From NCBI RefSeq assembly GCF_029320955.1, contig NZ_CP119757.1:2480001-2544000 (forward strand): a stretch of 64,000 bases of DNA. The letters run 5' to 3'. Within the stretch, counting starts at the first letter, position 1; each line of letters starts with the position of its first letter. Below, in pieces: positions 8,313-52,324 of the stretch. The translations under genes were made by a program, and so were the position numbers. This DNA is from Flavobacterium sp. YJ01 (GTDB lineage: Bacteria; Bacteroidota; Bacteroidia; Flavobacteriales; Flavobacteriaceae). A model generated the notes under the pieces. The model saw only the letters and a list, made by a program, of their open reading frames with translations, searched no databases and was not told the DNA's origin.

Positions 8313-9413
8313 ATGTTTACAGCAGCTGATTTTATTCCAACATCATATACATCAACAATCGAAAACGGAAACTTTGAGTGGAGTGCTCCAAGCAATATTG
8401 CACTAGTGAAATACTGGGGGAAAAAAGACAACCAGATTCCAGCAAATCCTTCGGTAAGTTTTACTTTGAATAATTGTAAAACGATTACGAAATTAGGCTT
8501 TGAAAAAAGAGACGCTTCGACTCCGCTCAACGTGACAAATGGTTTTTCATTCGATTTGCTTTTTGAAGGAAAACCAAAGGAAGATTTCAAACCGAAAATT
8601 CAGAAATTTTTAGAAAGAGTTGAAGTTTATCTGCCATTTCTAAAAGAGTATCATTTTACGATTGACACTCAAAATACTTTTCCGCACAGTTCTGGAATTG
8701 CTTCTTCGGCATCTGGAATGGCGGCTTTAGCAATGAATTTTATGAGTTTAGAAAGAAAACTAAATCCAGTAATGACGGATGATTATTTCTATCAAAAAGC
8801 ATCATTTTTAGCTCGTTTAGGTTCTGGAAGTGCTTGCAGAAGCGTAAAAGGTAATGTGGTTGTTTGGGGAAATCAGGCAAACATTGAAGGAAGTTCTGAT
8901 TTGTTTGGAGTTGAATATCCGTATACAATTCACGAAAATTTCAAGAATTATCAAGATACTATTTTATTAGTTGATAAAGGAGAAAAACAAGTCTCGAGCA
9001 CCGTTGGGCATGATTTAATGCATAATCATCCATATGCAGAAAGACGTTTTGTACAAGCGCATGAAAATCTGGATCAATTAATTTCCATTTTTGAAAGCGG
9101 AAATTTAGACGAATTCATCAAAGTTGTAGAAAGTGAAGCTTTGACTTTGCATGCCATGATGATGACTTCGATGCCGTACTTTATTTTGATGAAACCAAAC
9201 ACGCTGCAAATCATAAATGCCATCTGGAAATTTAGACAAGAAACACAAATTCCAGTTTGTTTTACACTTGATGCAGGGGCAAATGTGCATGTGCTTTATC
9301 CCGAAAACGTTAGCGAAAAAGTATTACAATTTATTCAGGACGAATTAGTTGTATTTTGTCAGAATAGTCAATACATTTGCGACAAAATTGGAGAAGGTGC
9401 GATTGCATTATAA
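8313..9413 (+). CDS. mvaD: Diphosphomevalonate decarboxylase
   Basis: A 366-residue GHMP-superfamily enzyme converting mevalonate 5-diphosphate to isopentenyl diphosphate with ATP. Visible signatures are SNIALVKYWGKKD near the N-terminus (active-site Lys) and PHSSGIASSASGMAALA, the glycine/serine-rich phosphate loop. SGSACRS and LDAGANVHVLY (catalytic Asp) follow. Residues about 66-77 (RDASTPLNVTNG) look like an insertion: they are encoded by a dispersed-repeat sequence at about 8511-8540 and break an otherwise conserved segment between two beta strands. It begins an isoprenoid cluster with mevalonate kinase and a UbiA prenyltransferase, and has its own promoter element. Confidence 0.95.
   Translation: MFTAADFIPTSYTSTIENGNFEWSAPSNIALVKYWGKKDNQIPANPSVSFTLNNCKTITKLGFEKRDASTPLNVTNGFSFDLLFEGKPKEDFKPKIQKFLERVEVYLPFLKEYHFTIDTQNTFPHSSGIASSASGMAALAMNFMSLERKLNPVMTDDYFYQKASFLARLGSGSACRSVKGNVVVWGNQANIEGSSDLFGVEYPYTIHENFKNYQDTILLVDKGEKQVSSTVGHDLMHNHPYAERRFVQAHENLDQLISIFESGNLDEFIKVVESEALTLHAMMMTSMPYFILMKPNTLQIINAIWKFRQETQIPVCFTLDAGANVHVLYPENVSEKVLQFIQDELVVFCQNSQYICDKIGEGAIAL
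8511..8540 (+). repeat. Dispersed-repeat segment inside mvaD, in frame
   Basis: The segment contains GCTTCGACTCCGCTCAACGT followed by GACAAAT, read as ASTPLNVTN. The same DNA pattern in the same reading frame occurs in the cyclase gene at about 20588-20665. Its composition (CG-rich, TCG codons) differs from the surrounding coding sequence. It is taken as an inserted repeat unit that kept the frame. Confidence 0.6.
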
Positions 9414-12486: not shown

Positions 12487-12594
12487 AGCTTTTTTTTGTT
12501 TCACGCAGATTTGGCAGATTTTTTCTTTGCGAATTGATGCAATTTTTAAATTATATTAATACTAAATATTTAAAAGAAGCCAATTGTTTGAATT

Positions 12595-12675
12595 CTAGCC
12601 CCGATTGAAGTGGAAATCTTTTTATTTTTTTCTTTAAAAAATAAAAAATTGGGAACGGAAAGCGGGAATCCATAT
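12595..12675 (+). ncRNA. Candidate structured RNA element (CTAGCCCCGAT...GCGGGA type)
   Basis: The left side holds CTAGCCCCGATTGAAGTGG and the right side GGAACGGAAAGCGGGAAT. CCCG and CGGG can pair at the base, and the A/T-rich middle (TTTTTTCTTTAAAAAA type) can form an inner hairpin. Similar CCCCGAT...GCGGGA elements are recalled from many Bacteroidota intergenic regions, but no family name is assigned with confidence; Flavo-1 is one possibility not tested. Strand is uncertain. Confidence 0.35.
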
Positions 12676-18559: not shown

Positions 18560-19696
18560 ATGTCGGGGATTTACATTCACATACCGTTTTGCAAGCAGGC
18601 TTGTCATTATTGCGACTTTCATTTTTCTACTTCGATGAAGAAAAAGGATGAAATGGTTTTGGCTTTGGCTAAAGAAATCGCCGTTCGTAAAACTGAGTTT
18701 ACAAATGAGGTTGTAGAAACCATTTATTTTGGTGGCGGAACTCCTTCGGTATTATCAAATGAAGAAATAAACTTTTTAATTTCCGAAGTTTATAAAAATT
18801 ATAAAGTTGTAGAAAACCCAGAAATTACACTTGAAGCCAATCCTGATGATTTGTCTGCTGAACGAATTCTGGAATTATCTAAAAGTCCGATAAACAGATT
18901 AAGTATCGGAATTCAGTCTTTTTATGAAGAAGATTTGAAGATGATGAATCGCGCTCATAATTCGACAGAAGCCAAAAAATGTTTAGAAGAAGCGACAAAG
19001 TATTTTGATAATATTTCGCTCGATTTGATTTACGGAATTCCTGGAATGAGCGATGAAATGTGGAAACAAAACATTCAGACTGCTTTAGATTTTGGCATTC
19101 CGCATATTTCGAGTTATGCTTTGACGGTTGAACCAAAAACGGCTTTAAGCAAATTAATTCAGACAGGGAAAATTGCTGAACCTCAAGACGAAGTCGCTTC
19201 AAATCATTTTATGATTTTGGTTGAAATGCTTCAAAAAAACGGTTTTATTCACTACGAATTATCCAATTTTGGAAAGGAGAATTATTTCTCTAAAAACAAT
19301 TCGGCTTATTGGTTAGGCAAAAAATATATAGGAATCGGACCTTCTGCTCATAGTTATGACGGCGAAAAAAGAGGCTGGAATATTGCGAATAACTCTTTGT
19401 ATTTAAAAGCGATTCAAAACGATGAACTTCCTATTGAAACGGAAACTCTAACTATTTCAGATCGTTACAATGAATATATTATGACAGGTTTACGAACGAT
19501 TTGGGGTGTTTCTTTAGAAAGAATTGAAAAAGAATTTGGTTCAGAATATTTGAATTATTTATTAGAACAATCTCAAAAATTCTTAACCGACGATTTGCTT
19601 TCGATAGAAAACAACATTCTAAAACCAACTCCAAAAGGAAAATTTTTAACGGATGGAATTGCTTCAGATTTATTTTATTTAGATTCTGAGGTTTAA
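18560..19696 (+). CDS. hemW: Radical SAM heme chaperone HemW
   Basis: A 378-residue radical SAM protein of the HemN/HemW family. The [4Fe-4S] motif CKQACHYCDF uses Cys11, Cys15 and Cys18, and the tyrosine before it is the Y of YIHIPFC. The substrate-binding block YFGGGTPSVLS follows, then EANPDDL and RLSIGIQSF. The C-terminal winged-helix HemN_C domain covers about 290-375. HemW proteins carry heme to target enzymes rather than oxidising coproporphyrinogen; the single Cys set without the extra N-terminal part of HemN supports HemW. It is separated from ruvC by repeat DNA. Confidence 0.93.
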   Translation: MSGIYIHIPFCKQACHYCDFHFSTSMKKKDEMVLALAKEIAVRKTEFTNEVVETIYFGGGTPSVLSNEEINFLISEVYKNYKVVENPEITLEANPDDLSAERILELSKSPINRLSIGIQSFYEEDLKMMNRAHNSTEAKKCLEEATKYFDNISLDLIYGIPGMSDEMWKQNIQTALDFGIPHISSYALTVEPKTALSKLIQTGKIAEPQDEVASNHFMILVEMLQKNGFIHYELSNFGKENYFSKNNSAYWLGKKYIGIGPSAHSYDGEKRGWNIANNSLYLKAIQNDELPIETETLTISDRYNEYIMTGLRTIWGVSLERIEKEFGSEYLNYLLEQSQKFLTDDLLSIENNILKPTPKGKFLTDGIASDLFYLDSEV

Positions 19697-19732
19697 CCGC
19701 AAAGTTCGCTAAGGTTTACGCAAAGAACGCTA
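19694..19732. repeat. Inverted repeat arm left of the GxxExxY gene
   Basis: AACCGCAAAGTTCGCTAAGG followed by TTTACGCAAAGAACGC. The reverse complement of this unit is found at 20196-20235. The arms are about 36 bp each and enclose 460 bp holding one gene. Confidence 0.85.
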
Positions 19733-19806
19733 TTTGTTTTTTTTTGTAGGAATAAAATTATATTTTAAATTTTCAAATATTATATTTGAATTTTAATATT
19801 GATTTT

Positions 19807-20184
19807 ATGACAGAGAATGATTTATCTCGAATTGTATTTAATTCTGCTTTGAAAGTTCATCAAACTTTAGGTCCAGGACTTTTAGAAAGCGCTTATGAAG
19901 AATGTTTATTTTATGAGTTAAAGAAACTTAACTTAATAGTTGAAAAACAAAAGGCTTTACCTCTAATTTACGAAGAAGTAAAATTAGATGTTGGTTATCG
20001 ATTAGATATTTTAGTAGAAAATAAACTAATTTTGGAAATAAAAGCAGTCGATTGTTTAAATGAAGTTCACCTTGCACAACTATTGACTTATTTAAAATTA
20101 ACAAATTGCAAATTAGGTTTATTAATAAATTTCAATGTTTCTCTAATAAAAAACGAAATTAAAAGAGTGGCAAATAATCTTTAA
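19807..20184 (+). CDS. GxxExxY protein (PD-(D/E)XK nuclease-like fold)
   Basis: A 125-residue protein of the GxxExxY family. The name motif is visible as GPGLLESAYEECL at about residues 20-32. Then comes a nuclease-like core: GYRLDILVENKLILEIKAV carries the Asp and the E-x-K of a PD-(D/E)XK site. Family members are widespread in Bacteroidota and other phyla, but no biochemical function is known to be established. The ATG at 19807 is chosen over an upstream TTG. The gene sits exactly between two inverted copies of a dispersed repeat, which suggests co-mobilisation or shared history. It may be a solitary gene under its own promoter. Confidence 0.88.
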   Translation: MTENDLSRIVFNSALKVHQTLGPGLLESAYEECLFYELKKLNLIVEKQKALPLIYEEVKLDVGYRLDILVENKLILEIKAVDCLNEVHLAQLLTYLKLTNCKLGLLINFNVSLIKNEIKRVANNL

Positions 20185-20195
20185 AAAAAAATCCT

Positions 20196-20235
20196 AGCGC
20201 CCTTTGCGTAAACCTTAGCGAACCTTGCGGTTAAA
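20196..20235. repeat. Inverted repeat arm right of the GxxExxY gene
   Basis: GCCCTTTGCGTAAACCTTAG followed by CGAACCTTGCGGTT, the reverse complement (with few changes) of the unit at 19694-19732. The right end touches the start of the cyclase gene at 20238. Confidence 0.85.
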
Positions 20236-20237
20236 TT

Positions 20238-21035
20238 ATGATAGCAAAAATCAACAACTTCGAAATCGACTTATCAAAACCCATTGATATCTCTATTCCA
20301 TTAACCAATACAGACGAAAACCCAATTGCTTGGTATATCGAAAAACCAGTTATTGAACCGGTAGTTTTTGGCGATTGGATTGGGAAAGTTTCAGAAGGAA
20401 AATCGTCTACAAATTTTAATAATATTTTCTTCAATCCGCATGGGCATGGAACGCATACGGAATGTTTGGGGCATATTACGAATGATTTTTACAGCATTAA
20501 TCAATCGTTGAAACAGTTTTTCTTTTTTGCTAAATTGATTACGGTTGAACCTGAGAAAATTGGAGATGATTTTGTGATTACGAAAGAAAGCATTTCGACT
20601 TCGCTCAATGTGACATCGCCTGAGGGCGCTTCTCCTGAGGCTTCGGGATCGCTCAGCGTGACAAACGAAGCCTTAATAATTCGGACTCTTCCAAACCAAA
20701 ACGAAAAAAAATCAAGAAAATATTCCAATACCAATCCACCATATTTGTCTGAAGAAGCTGCGATTTTCATCCGCGAAAGCGAAATTCAGCATCTGCTAAT
20801 CGATCTTCCAAGTGTTGACAAAGAACATGACGAAGGAAAATTATTGGCGCATAAGGCATTTTGGAATGTAAAAGACACGCATAATCTAAATTCTGACGCA
20901 AGATTAAATGCCACAATTACCGAAATGATTTATGTTTCAGACGAAATTGAAGATGGAAATTATATACTAAATATTCAAATCGCTTCGTTTGAAAATGACG
21001 CAAGTCCGAGCAAACCAATTTTATATAAGATTTAA
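20238..21035 (+). CDS. Cyclase-family hydrolase (kynurenine formamidase-like)
   Basis: A 265-residue protein of the metal-dependent cyclase superfamily, which includes kynurenine formamidase. The metal motif is HGHGTHTECLGH (residues 68-79; HGxHxDxPxH with Glu/Cys variation). IDLPSVDKEHDEG and AKDTH-like downstream blocks follow (KDTHNLNSDARLNATITEMI). Residues about 118-143 come from a dispersed repeat inserted in frame (20588-20665), encoding STSLNVT and SGSLSVT. The insertion lies between the metal motif and the next conserved strand. The start is 3 bp after a repeat arm. Substrate cannot be told. Confidence 0.85.
   Translation: MIAKINNFEIDLSKPIDISIPLTNTDENPIAWYIEKPVIEPVVFGDWIGKVSEGKSSTNFNNIFFNPHGHGTHTECLGHITNDFYSINQSLKQFFFFAKLITVEPEKIGDDFVITKESISTSLNVTSPEGASPEASGSLSVTNEALIIRTLPNQNEKKSRKYSNTNPPYLSEEAAIFIRESEIQHLLIDLPSVDKEHDEGKLLAHKAFWNVKDTHNLNSDARLNATITEMIYVSDEIEDGNYILNIQIASFENDASPSKPILYKI
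20588..20665 (+). repeat. Dispersed repeat inside the cyclase gene, in frame
   Basis: Two related units in a row: ATTTCGACTTCGCTCAATGT then GACATCGCCTGAGGGC, and GAGGCTTCGGGATCGCTCAG then CGTGACAAA. Both are read in the same frame, giving STSLNVTS and SGSLSVTN. The unit inside mvaD (8511-8540) is read in the same frame too. The segment is richer in G and C than the gene around it. Confidence 0.7.
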
Positions 21036-23143: not shown

Positions 23144-23149
23144 GTTAGT

Positions 23150-23287
23150 CTTAAAGTCACAAGTCGAAAGTCTTAAAGTTTTTGACTTTGTCTAAATAAT
23201 AAAAGCCAGAAATAGAAATTCTATTTCTGGCTTTATCTTTTTAAGTCTGCAATTCGACTTTGAGACTTTCGACTTGTGACTTTCAGA
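23150..23287. terminator. Bidirectional terminator in nested inverted repeats
   Basis: The core stem AGCCAGAAATAG/CTATTTCTGGCT with a 5-nt loop (about 23203-23233) is preceded by A and followed by T runs, so it can terminate in both directions. It serves the PH-domain gene and the convergent DUF4407 gene. Around it, AAGTCACAAGTCGAAAGTCT and AGACTTTCGACTTGTGACTT form outer arms (about 23153-23172 and 23265-23285). Confidence 0.85.
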
Positions 23288-24388
23288 CTAAAGCGTCGCT
23301 TTTTGTTTTTCTACAAATTTATGAGATTGCAACTCCAATAATTCTTTTGCATTCTTTCGCTGTAAATCGAATAAACCTTTATCTTCTGCAATATCTGCGT
23401 AGACTTTATCGTGCATTTCGGCGCTGGTTTTAATCAATAACTCGCGTTGGTATTTATTTTGCGATAAAGTAGCTTTCATTGCCGTTTCAGCTTCTTCTTG
23501 TTTGAAATCGAATTCACCTTTTGGAGCTAATAATTTGGCAATAATTGGCGAAGTTTCAATTGCAAGAAACAAAAGCATAATGAAAAATGAAGGCAACCAA
23601 GGCAATTTGTTTAACGCATTGATACGCGCCATTAATCCGTCAAAACCTTCGATGATTGGTTGGGTTTGCGAAACTTTTTTGTCTAAATCGGCTTGAAGCT
23701 GTACGCCTGCTTTTTCTTTTTCGGCAATTTTGGCTTCGTTGGCTTTTTTTAGCGTTTCGAATTCTTTTAAAGCTGCGTCGTGTTTCTCGCGTTTTTCTTT
23801 ATAAACTGGACCTTTTCCAAGTTTTTTGGTTCCAGCAGTTCCTTCGGCTTCAGTAATATAAACAGAATACAAATCGTTTACTTCTTTTTCTTTCTTTACA
23901 ATATCAGCTTTTAAAGCGGCAATTTCGGCTTTATTTTTATCTAAATCTGTTTTGAAATACGTTCCGATTTGCTTTTTATTCGCCAATTCCATTTCGTTTT
24001 TCTCTTTCAACAAAACAGTATTGATTTCTTTTTCGAAAATTTTAATCTCTAAAGGTTTAGAAATTACAATCGCAATAATAACCGCCAATATAATACGAGG
24101 TGTTGCTTGCAGAAATTCGTCCATAAAACGATCTCTTTTCTTAATCGTAGAAACGATAAAACGGTCTAGATTAAAAATTAGCAAACTCCAAACAAATCCG
24201 AAAATTAGAGCGGGATAAATAGAATCGAAAACGGTAAAAAGCGCATAAGCACTGGCTAAGAAAGCCATAACTGCTGTAAAAAATACTGTGGCTCCAATAC
24301 CAACATATTTGGTTTGTTCGCCTTCTGAGCAGTCTTTTAGGAGATCACGGTCGACTCCCGAACATAGGATAAAAAATTGTTTTAACAT
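23288..24388 (-). CDS. DUF4407 domain-containing membrane protein
   Basis: A 366-residue protein. It has two N-terminal transmembrane helices (about 28-50 and 55-75) with LIFNLDRFIVST after them, a third at about 92-108 (IILAVIIAIVISKPLEIKIF) and a fourth near 275-292 (SFFIMLLFLAIETSPIIAKLL). Between the third and fourth lies a long charged coiled coil (about 115-265) on the outside, with Lys/Glu repeats. A cytoplasmic tail follows. The KRRxxG-like FDRF and ETSPIIAKL blocks mark DUF4407. Possible -7 element TAAATTTG at 24420-24427 with TTG 19 bp upstream. Function unknown. Confidence 0.87.
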   Translation of the reverse strand: MLKQFFILCSGVDRDLLKDCSEGEQTKYVGIGATVFFTAVMAFLASAYALFTVFDSIYPALIFGFVWSLLIFNLDRFIVSTIKKRDRFMDEFLQATPRIILAVIIAIVISKPLEIKIFEKEINTVLLKEKNEMELANKKQIGTYFKTDLDKNKAEIAALKADIVKKEKEVNDLYSVYITEAEGTAGTKKLGKGPVYKEKREKHDAALKEFETLKKANEAKIAEKEKAGVQLQADLDKKVSQTQPIIEGFDGLMARINALNKLPWLPSFFIMLLFLAIETSPIIAKLLAPKGEFDFKQEEAETAMKATLSQNKYQRELLIKTSAEMHDKVYADIAEDKGLFDLQRKNAKELLELQSHKFVEKQKATL

Positions 24389-41686: not shown

Positions 41687-42259
41687 GGTTCGTATTTTTA
41701 ATTTTATCCCAAAATTATTTCGAAAAGCATTTTTTGATAACGGTTTTCTTACGGCATTTCTACGACATTTCATAATGTCGCTAATATATAATTAATTTTA
41801 ATGCACAAGAATTGAACTATATAAAGTATTCCGAACACACGAACGATAACGAACTGGCGAAGCAAATCTCCGCGAGAAGCTCGGCAAAGATTGGCGAATT
41901 TACTTTGCGGAATTACTTGTGATTCTTCGTTCCTCAGAATGACAAAAAATGCGAAAAAACTTTGCGACTCTGCGACTTTGCGAGATTAAAATCAGCAGAG
42001 AAAAGATGACAAATATTTTCTCGCTACAATGAAAAAAAATCCTTTAATCCTAATAATCTGTGGCTGAAAAAAAACTTTGCATCTCTGCTCCCGATAGCTA
42101 TCGGGATTGAGAGATTAAAACCAACAAAAGATTATAAACTCAGAAATTTCTCAAATTATTTCATGTTTTAATCTCAAAATATTCTTATTTTTAAAATACC
42201 AAAAACCTAAATCTGCATATTTTATTTTGTTTTTAAATCTCTAAAATCATTTAGAACAC
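41687..42259. other. 573-bp intergenic region made of repeat fragments
   Basis: No gene. It is a mosaic: GAACGATAACGAACTGGCG and GATTCTTCGTTCCTCAGAAT near 41834-41945, TTTGCGACTCTGCGACTTTG at about 41962, AATCCTTTAATCCTAATAAT with CTGTGGCTG near 42040-42066, and the palindrome CCCGATAGCTATCGGG near 42090-42110. Each piece also occurs elsewhere in the window. Confidence 0.75.
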
Positions 42260-51942: not shown

Positions 51943-52324
51943 TATTTTAATATATAAATGGAAAATCTTTGTGGACTTACTTGCGGAGATTCTTCGTTCC
52001 TCAGAATAACAAACTGTTCGTTTAAATCATAATTACACAAAAAAAAAAATCGCAAAGCTTAAAATTGATTAAGCTTTGCGACTTTGCATTCTTTAAAAAA
52101 TATCTTTGCTCCCGATAGCTATCGGGATTGCGTATCCCGAGGCTTCGGGATAGCGCTCTTTGCGGTAAAATTTCTTCGGATTTAAACAAAACAAAAGTGT
52201 TATAAATCAAAAAAGCCATCCACAAAAGTGGAAAGCTTTTCATTGGTCTAACTACTAAACCAGCTACGAGTTACAAAGTCGTAGCAAAACAACACAACTA
52301 ATCTTAGATACCGTATTTGGGCAA

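What the first reader, a model, noticed from the sequence alone, without database searches (positions are those of the whole stretch)
20588..20665. Dispersed repeat read in frame: shared peptide S-x-x-L-(N/S)-V-T in two unrelated genes
The cyclase-family gene carries two repeat units coding for STSLNVTS and SGSLSVTN. The unrelated mvaD gene carries STPLNVTN from the same DNA pattern and in the same reading frame. That one DNA element codes for the same peptide in two proteins, each time as an extra loop, recalls the Rickettsia palindromic elements. It suggests repeats in this genome can invade genes and survive when frame and orientation are right.
Basis: partly seen in the sequence, partly recalled or inferred. 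Interest (0 to 1): 0.7.

Follow-up and report, generated by a model that had tools for sequence, protein, structure and literature searches.

The report
Spacer repeats turned into protein loops
Short hairpin-like DNA repeats that normally sit between genes in Flavobacterium have repeatedly ended up inside ordinary enzyme genes, where they are read as short stretches of protein that differ from one related species to the next.

Summary
mvaD carries one repeat unit and the cyclase two, all read in one frame. The repeat is a REP-like family (TGTCA tag plus a short stem whose ends covary): 116 pattern matches and 128 model matches in the genome. Six of the 128 lie in five real genes: mvaD, the cyclase (two), gltX, purL and a radical SAM gene; hemW and a pabB-like gene carry units in relatives. 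The shared frame is not general: four reading frames and both orientations are used. Sites are not always extra loops: in gltX the unit takes the place of equal-length sequence. And orthologous sites turn over, holding different unit types or none among close species. In 18 cyclases with the same unit peptide, unit codons are 97% identical against 65.5% for the same residues elsewhere, so the sameness is at DNA level. REPs inside genes, Rickettsia ones included, are already described (Di Nocera 2013). New here are a well-resolved Flavobacterium case, same-site swapping of unit types, and length-neutral replacement. How units get in is inferred, not shown.

The parts
8313..9413 (+). mvaD-like gene (diphosphomevalonate decarboxylase family), host of one unit
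   Evidence: ORF; Pfam; 30 genes of the genus aligned, own included
8513..8537 (+). REP unit, type A, ends CG/CG, read as A-STPLNVT
   Evidence: CM hit 8512-8537 E 2.7e-8
20238..21035 (+). cyclase-family gene (PF04199), host of two units
   Evidence: ORF; Pfam; 80 named orthologues
20591..20615 (+). REP unit 1, type A, ends CA/TG, read as I-STSLNVT
   Evidence: CM hit 20590-20615 E 2.6e-9
20627..20663 (+). REP unit 2, type B (tip replaced by a CTCCTGAGGCTTCGGGA palindrome), read as ASPEASGSLSVT
   Evidence: CM hit 20638-20663 E 2.9e-5
18695..18715 (+). empty site in own hemW, where 34 of 78 named relatives carry units or unit-like palindromes
18560..19696 (+). hemW-like radical SAM gene (PF04055, HemN_C)
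   Evidence: closest solved chain by sequence 1olt

Best explanation
The peptides are translated REP units. A family of short palindromic repeats (5' TGTCA, then a short stem with covarying ends around a GAGCGAAGTCGA-like core) fills spacers of this Flavobacterium genome, mostly as inverted pairs. Now and then one unit is copied into a gene. Copies survive where they keep the frame open and fall in a tolerant, variable stretch, and then they are translated. At such sites later copies replace earlier ones (type A, B or C; one, two or more units; or none). Shown: identity with the intergenic family, covarying ends, open in-frame reading, empty and filled orthologues, DNA-level sameness of the unit, different unit types at one site in close species. 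Inferred: that entry and swapping run by template switching or ectopic gene conversion between REP copies (my best guess, about 45%), and that the protein changes are near-neutral.
For: 116 pattern copies, control 0. Ends covary: position -3 with 16 complementary in 91 of 107 and -2 with 15 in 95 of 107 intergenic units, shuffled means 39.9 and 35.9; covariation score 0.448 against 0.111, 0 of 500 shuffles. Spacer layout: of 63 sites 41 co-directional, 19 convergent, 3 divergent. The mvaD and cyclase units carry matching CG/CG or CA/TG ends. Of 128 model matches all were held and placed: 6 in ORFs of 200 aa or more (5 genes), 2 in one 108-aa ORF and 29 in ORFs of 60-104 aa that I take for spurious, 91 in none. 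Placed at random in sequence 83.8% coding, about 107 would be genic. Empty and filled orthologues. DNA-level sameness: ISTSLNVT codons identical 1190 of 1224 against 8665 of 13221 for the same residues elsewhere; 120 of 153 species pairs share the exact 24-mer against 1641 of 21260 same-peptide windows. Different types at one site: mvaD A in G000, B in G015 (97% identical proteins); pabB A in 4, B in 3 of 30. The in-gene subtype tends to follow the genome's own subtype.
Against: No mobilising enzyme is tied to the units: 3 Y1_Tnp genes, none with a close type-A match in the about 3.2 kb held round each (one 14-mer at up to 2 mismatches in L092). Single units fold weakly as RNA and not better than shuffles. 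Subtype matching has exceptions: G068 has 13 S1 and 1 S2 although its cyclase holds S2, and G012 has 1 and 0. In gltX the difference between filled and native alleles could come from allelic recombination rather than new copying, since some synonymous changes 3' of the unit travel with it (my reading). The model was built from intergenic units and its first look scored 150 of 1621 candidates, so the genic share is a lower bound. Structure models are of low confidence (mean pLDDT 42.9 and 50.6), so 'loop' rests mainly on variability between species. Translation is inferred from open frames; no protein data were seen.
Confidence: 0.85

Rival explanations
1. One old insertion per gene, kept by descent and passed around by ordinary homologous recombination between congeners; no fresh supply from spacer REPs.
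For: The same sites recur across the genus. In gltX some 3' synonymous changes travel with the filled allele. Genic type-A units of the own genome have the TCC tip in 4 of 5 against 6 of 107 intergenic (post hoc Fisher p 1.6e-4), as if of an older generation.
Against: Types A, B and C at one site with constant arms, another subtype (TCTCGACTGCGCTCGA) at the same cyclase site in species whose genomes carry it elsewhere, and near-identity of unit DNA while flanks diverged.
Confidence: 0.2
2. Site-specific transposition: a Y1/RAYT-type transposase cuts single-stranded units and re-inserts them at the same points.
For: Three PF01797 genes in the genome; REP mobilisation by RAYTs is proposed for GTAG REPs (passages of PMC3733652).
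Against: No good unit match near the three genes; Di Nocera et al. found no transposase gene flanked by CGTC repeats; equal length of filled and native gltX is not what simple insertion gives.
Confidence: 0.12
3. The peptide S-x-x-L-x-V-T is selected as a protein motif (for example a modification or binding site) and the DNA likeness follows from that.
For: Same peptide in unrelated proteins and again in gltX (FSTPLEVT).
Against: Synonymous codons are held nearly constant; other genes show other peptides from other frames of the same DNA; CTC is a rare leucine codon in 20 window genes, 4.2%.
Confidence: 0.02
4. The units act in the mRNA (stability, termination or a protein-binding hairpin) and are kept in these genes for that.
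For: Spacer units lie mostly between co-directional or convergent genes (60 of 63); ends covary.
Against: Single units fold weakly; many congeners lack them in the same genes; genes are depleted of units.
Confidence: 0.05

Closest known systems
CGTC-tagged REP super-family (Di Nocera, De Gregorio, Rocco 2013, PMC3733652; abstract, passages and section 15 seen)
   Same: Short tagged palindromes, tag CGTC often changed to TGTC, reported in Bacteroidetes among five phyla, no dedicated transposase, mostly in spacers, mostly dimers, and intragenic copies listed for several species; REPs in X. campestris and X. oryzae recB lie at about the same site.
   Different: Described stems are 8-9 bp with A and T in the first two positions; the common unit here has four outer pairs plus one inner pair and no such rule. 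'Flavobacter' does not occur in its main text. Different subtypes at one site across many species, length-neutral replacement and four-frame use are shown here.
Rickettsia palindromic elements (RPE; as described in PMC3733652, otherwise recalled)
   Same: Palindromic repeats in frame inside unrelated genes; RPE-4 and RPE-6 are assigned to CGTC families in that paper.
   Different: RPE-1 is called longer in that paper. Here single 22-39 nt units, direct 27-nt multiples in one species, and equal length of filled and native alleles in gltX.
REPIN/RAYT systems (GTAG REPs; partly recalled)
   Same: Short palindromes in inverted pairs.
   Different: Tag is TGTC, not GTAG; no unit cluster at the Y1_Tnp genes.

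Membership tests
CGTC-tagged REPs (Di Nocera 2013) | terminal CGTC, or its variants TGTC/CCTC | tested here: met
   TGTC at 90% or more per column in 36 aligned units
CGTC-tagged REPs (Di Nocera 2013) | 8-9 bp stem with complementary A/T in first and second position, 4-5 nt loop | tested here: not met
   common unit: four outer pairs plus one inner pair, first two pairs variable (GC, CG, UA, AU)
CGTC-tagged REPs (Di Nocera 2013) | mostly dimers of inverted units | tested here: met
   40 (-,+), 3 (+,-), 1 same-strand neighbours within 130 bp among 107 units
CGTC-tagged REPs (Di Nocera 2013) | spacers between co-directional and convergent genes | tested here: met
   41 and 19 of 63 sites, 3 divergent
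CGTC-tagged REPs (Di Nocera 2013) | not flanking a transposase gene | tested here: met
   3 Y1_Tnp loci of about 3.2 kb, one weak 14-mer match only; other transposases not tested
Rickettsia palindromic elements | in-frame copies in unrelated genes | tested here: met
   5 genes in own genome, 2 more in congeners
Rickettsia palindromic elements | sequence homology to described RPE consensus | not tested
   no RPE sequence was fetched
GTAG REP / REPIN-RAYT | GTAG tag and RAYT flanked by units | tested here: not met
   tag TGTC; no unit cluster at Y1_Tnp genes

The most novel reading that the evidence does not exclude
Spacer REPs act as a continuing source of protein change in this genus: single units are written over coding DNA by frame-blind, often length-neutral templated replacement, and variable segments of conserved enzymes (GltX, MvaD, HemW, PabB, PurL, a radical SAM enzyme, a cyclase) are standing landing pads where units of the resident subtype keep replacing one another.
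Probability: 0.35. Interest if true: 0.78.

Novelty: new variant of a known kind. Interest (0 to 1): 0.6.

Why it matters
How non-coding repeats become protein has few well-resolved natural cases. Here one DNA family is found in seven genes and four frames, with dozens of related species showing empty, filled, swapped and decayed states of the same site, including a tRNA synthetase gene. That makes entry rate, direction, subtype tracking and cost to the enzyme measurable in a genus with harmless laboratory strains.

Tried and rejected
Considered and rejected: chance (control 0); protein-motif selection; Rfam-known RNA (only Flavo-1 and three tRNAs in the window); a RAYT tied to the units.

Led nowhere or weak: AlphaFold models of the cyclase and mvaD on shallow alignments came out at mean pLDDT 42.9 and 50.6; I used only the local pattern and ran no fold search. 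The third subtype count was badly posed: the pattern began with T where the in-gene copy in G080 has G, so 0 of 32 says nothing. RNA folding of 7 single units was not better than shuffles. Tree test: fewest state changes 34 for the cyclase site (shuffled mean 37.5, lowest 31) and 24 for hemW (30.7, lowest 23) on 78 of 80 loci; this means fast turnover or a poor tree, and the two are not separated. Scripts redone: one search classed states crudely, one search stopped with an error, one search is the one used; the radical SAM parse missed 87 of 120 and 10 of 120. The mvaD and cyclase protein parses missed 7 of 120 and 4 of 120. The early count '2 of 109 pattern hits in genes' was low: the model search added three genes, all with CTCG-type units that the first pattern missed. 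The first look scored 150 of 1621 candidates, so more degenerate genic copies may exist.

Ascertainment: the survey of 1.64 Mb (156 units, 88 inside ORFs of 120 aa or more) is centred on the cyclase; the 88 include five in a spurious 158-aa ORF (L281) and a few likely chance matches. pabB was found through a pattern biased to certain ends; of the places listed there I read the 30 loci returned and 40 fetched regions, not all. Counts of filled, unclear and empty sites are by eye.

Full report
What is there. The window is G000:C1:2480001-2544000 of a 5.48 Mb single-contig genome; named relatives are nearly all Flavobacterium. The cyclase-family gene at 20238-21035 holds two repeat units (20591-20615 and 20627-20663) and the mvaD gene at 8313-9413 one (8513-8537), all on the coding strand and in one phase.

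What the repeat is. TTCGACTNCGCTCANNNTGACA with up to 2 mismatches occurs 116 times in the genome (61 forward, 55 reverse; reversed control 0). I recovered 109 of the 116 in fetched stretches. Read on the other strand a unit is TGTCA, two variable bases, CTGAGCGAAGTCGAAG, two variable bases. The variable ends covary: complementary in 91 and 95 of 107 intergenic units against shuffled means of 39.9 and 35.9; on 36 units the covariation score is 0.448 against 0.111 shuffled and at most 0.192 when slid. Units sit in spacers, mostly as inverted pairs (40 against 3 and 1), at 41 co-directional, 19 convergent and 3 divergent of 63 sites. These are traits of REPs.

Units inside genes. A covariance model of intergenic units finds 128 matches in the own genome at E up to 1. 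All 128 lie in stretches I hold: 6 fall in ORFs of 200 aa or more, 2 (one inverted pair) in a 108-aa ORF, 29 in ORFs of 60-104 aa and 91 in none; I take the ORFs of 60-108 aa for spurious, unproven case by case. The six are in five genes: mvaD (STPLNVT); the cyclase (STSLNVT, and type B SPEASGSLSVT); glutamyl-tRNA synthetase gltX (FSTPLEVT, same frame as mvaD); purL (VISSGVER, other strand); and a radical SAM gene whose relatives are named B12-binding (LSSRAESRD, other strand and another frame). With 83.8% of the window coding, about 107 of 128 would be genic by chance, so genes are strongly depleted; the model, built from spacer units, adds some bias. The four exact matches of the CTCG subtype are three genic copies and one spacer copy.

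More genes in relatives. In hemW, 34 of 78 named loci carry units or unit-like palindromes at one site: LDSARSDN/FDSAQ forms 20, PFDSAQGDN type 7, type B 2, and a bare DPEFS palindrome 5. The own hemW lacks them. A pabB-like gene carries type A in four (G109, G077, G042, G049) and type B in three (G057, G015, G096) of 30 orthologues, on the antisense strand, and three more look like decayed units (G102, G052, G075). The radical SAM site holds two different frames of the repeat in different proteins (NLSSRAESRDEK; NAVTSSEVEK), both together in two (VTSRVSSRAESREEK, VTSSVSSRAESRDEK), or neither (LENPDSDS); 110 of 120 listed proteins were parsed. The DNA of those proteins was not read, save the own one.

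Empty and filled orthologues. By eye, of 30 mvaD genes (own included) 21 carry a unit, some of them decayed, 2 are unclear, 7 lack it. Of 30 cyclases (own included) 20 carry, 3 are unclear, 7 lack it. Among 20 more distant mvaD genes 5 carry a whole or partial unit, 2 are unclear and 13 lack it; among 20 more distant cyclases 7 carry and 13 lack it. One named genome (L291, Flavobacterium sp. UGB4466) has seven direct in-frame units at 27-nt spacing and a decayed eighth in the cyclase.

Length. The mvaD units lengthen the protein by several residues relative to short alleles. In gltX, all 25 segments measured are 39 residues, whether the middle reads IDVSKYDLT or FSTPLEVTT; the closest solved relative, 6brl, aligns without a gap there. 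Counting rows read, 11 of 30 gltX genes carry the unit, 1 is unclear, 18 do not. Cyclase unit 1 and pabB type A also fit without added length in some pairs (F. defluvii L278 against F. resistens L283; G109 against G006).

DNA-level sameness. Among 18 of 79 named cyclases with exactly ISTSLNVT, unit codons agree in 1190 of 1224 comparisons while the same residues elsewhere agree in 8665 of 13221; 120 of 153 pairs share the whole 24-mer against 1641 of 21260 same-peptide windows. Protein-level selection does not explain this. Pairs are not independent, so I give no p value.

Turnover and source. At the mvaD site G000 has type A and G015, 97% identical in protein, type B, with the arms nearly unchanged. 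The cyclase site shows A, B, C (a CCCGATAGCTATCGGGAT tip, L247), AA, AB, BA and none. The subtype TCTCGACTGCGCTCGA is absent from the 10 nearer genomes tested (own included), which have 6-146 copies of the own subtype. It is present in G029 (36), G007 (10) and G010 (5, one of them the cyclase copy), whose cyclases hold that subtype, exactly in G010 and with one mismatch in G029 and G007. G119 has 1 (the cyclase copy itself) and 2 of the own subtype; G068 and G012 do not fit (7 against 6 genomes, p 0.0055, relatedness not controlled). Resident repeats are thus a likely source, with exceptions. Minimum state changes on a 78-locus tree are close to shuffled values: turnover is fast, or the tree is poor.

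How it may work. My best guess is template switching or ectopic conversion between a gene stretch and a REP elsewhere. It accounts for constant arms with swapped tips, single units rather than inverted pairs in genes, and replacement without length change. Insertion by a transposase fits less well and no candidate enzyme is tied to the units. Allelic recombination among species probably adds. None of these steps was observed.

Where in the protein. In the mvaD model the unit (69-75) is a low-confidence stretch between strands 47-65 and 79-82, and in the cyclase model 126-143 is low-confidence before strand 145-149; both models are poor throughout. The purL unit lies just before the GATase_5 domain match that begins at residue 499.

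What is known. Di Nocera et al. 2013 (PMC3733652; abstract, passages and section 15 seen) describe GTAG and CGTC REPs, list intragenic REPs, assign RPE-4 and RPE-6 to CGTC families, and note REPs at about one site in two Xanthomonas recB genes. Searches of the held library for Rickettsia palindromic elements, Flavobacterium with REP, CGTC-tagged repeats, in-frame palindromes, intragenic REPs, Bacteroidetes, and the core sequences listed no paper that, by title and abstract start, describes this case; the library lacks most subscription journals. In RepRanger (PMC12306157, passages) the two mentions of Flavobacterium are species rows of a table.

Verdict. Real, and broader than reported. A new variant of a known kind: intragenic REPs with different subtypes at one site and some length-neutral replacement. 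The unit meets the tag, dimer and location traits of CGTC REPs but not the described stem, so I do not file it in those four families.

Noticed in passing
window 19692-20235: A GxxExxY/PDDEXK_3 ORF (19786-20184) lies inside a 53-nt inverted repeat between hemW and the cyclase. Of 79 named loci measured the gap is 23-105 bp in 49 and 536-611 bp in 24, such an ORF being recognised in 23 of the 24: it looks like a presence/absence cassette framed by a dispersed repeat.
   Followed up: partly
L213 (own pabB-like gene); window 23145-23179 and 23257-23291: The own pabB site holds another repeated word, AGTCGAAAGTC, read in frame as ESRKSKVES; a 35-nt inverted repeat in the window carries a like word. 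A second repeat family may also enter genes.
   Followed up: no
own genome, genic against intergenic units: Genic type-A units have the TCC tip in 4 of 5, intergenic in 6 of 107 (post hoc p 1.6e-4): genes may keep an older repeat generation.
   Followed up: partly
L291 261-1196: Seven direct in-frame units at 27-nt spacing and a decayed eighth in one cyclase: tandem growth of a REP inside a gene.
   Followed up: no
G057:C1:4894685-4894908 and 5065993-5066414; G091:C6:251413-252741: Same-strand arrays of units spaced about 80-230 bp in relatives.
   Followed up: no
window 41922-41944 and 51989-52011: Related palindromes TGTCATTCTGAGGAACGAAGAAT and a one-base variant of it, weaker hits of the same model.
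   Followed up: no
window 12593-12673: Flavo-1 RNA (RF01705), 75.3 bits.
   Followed up: no
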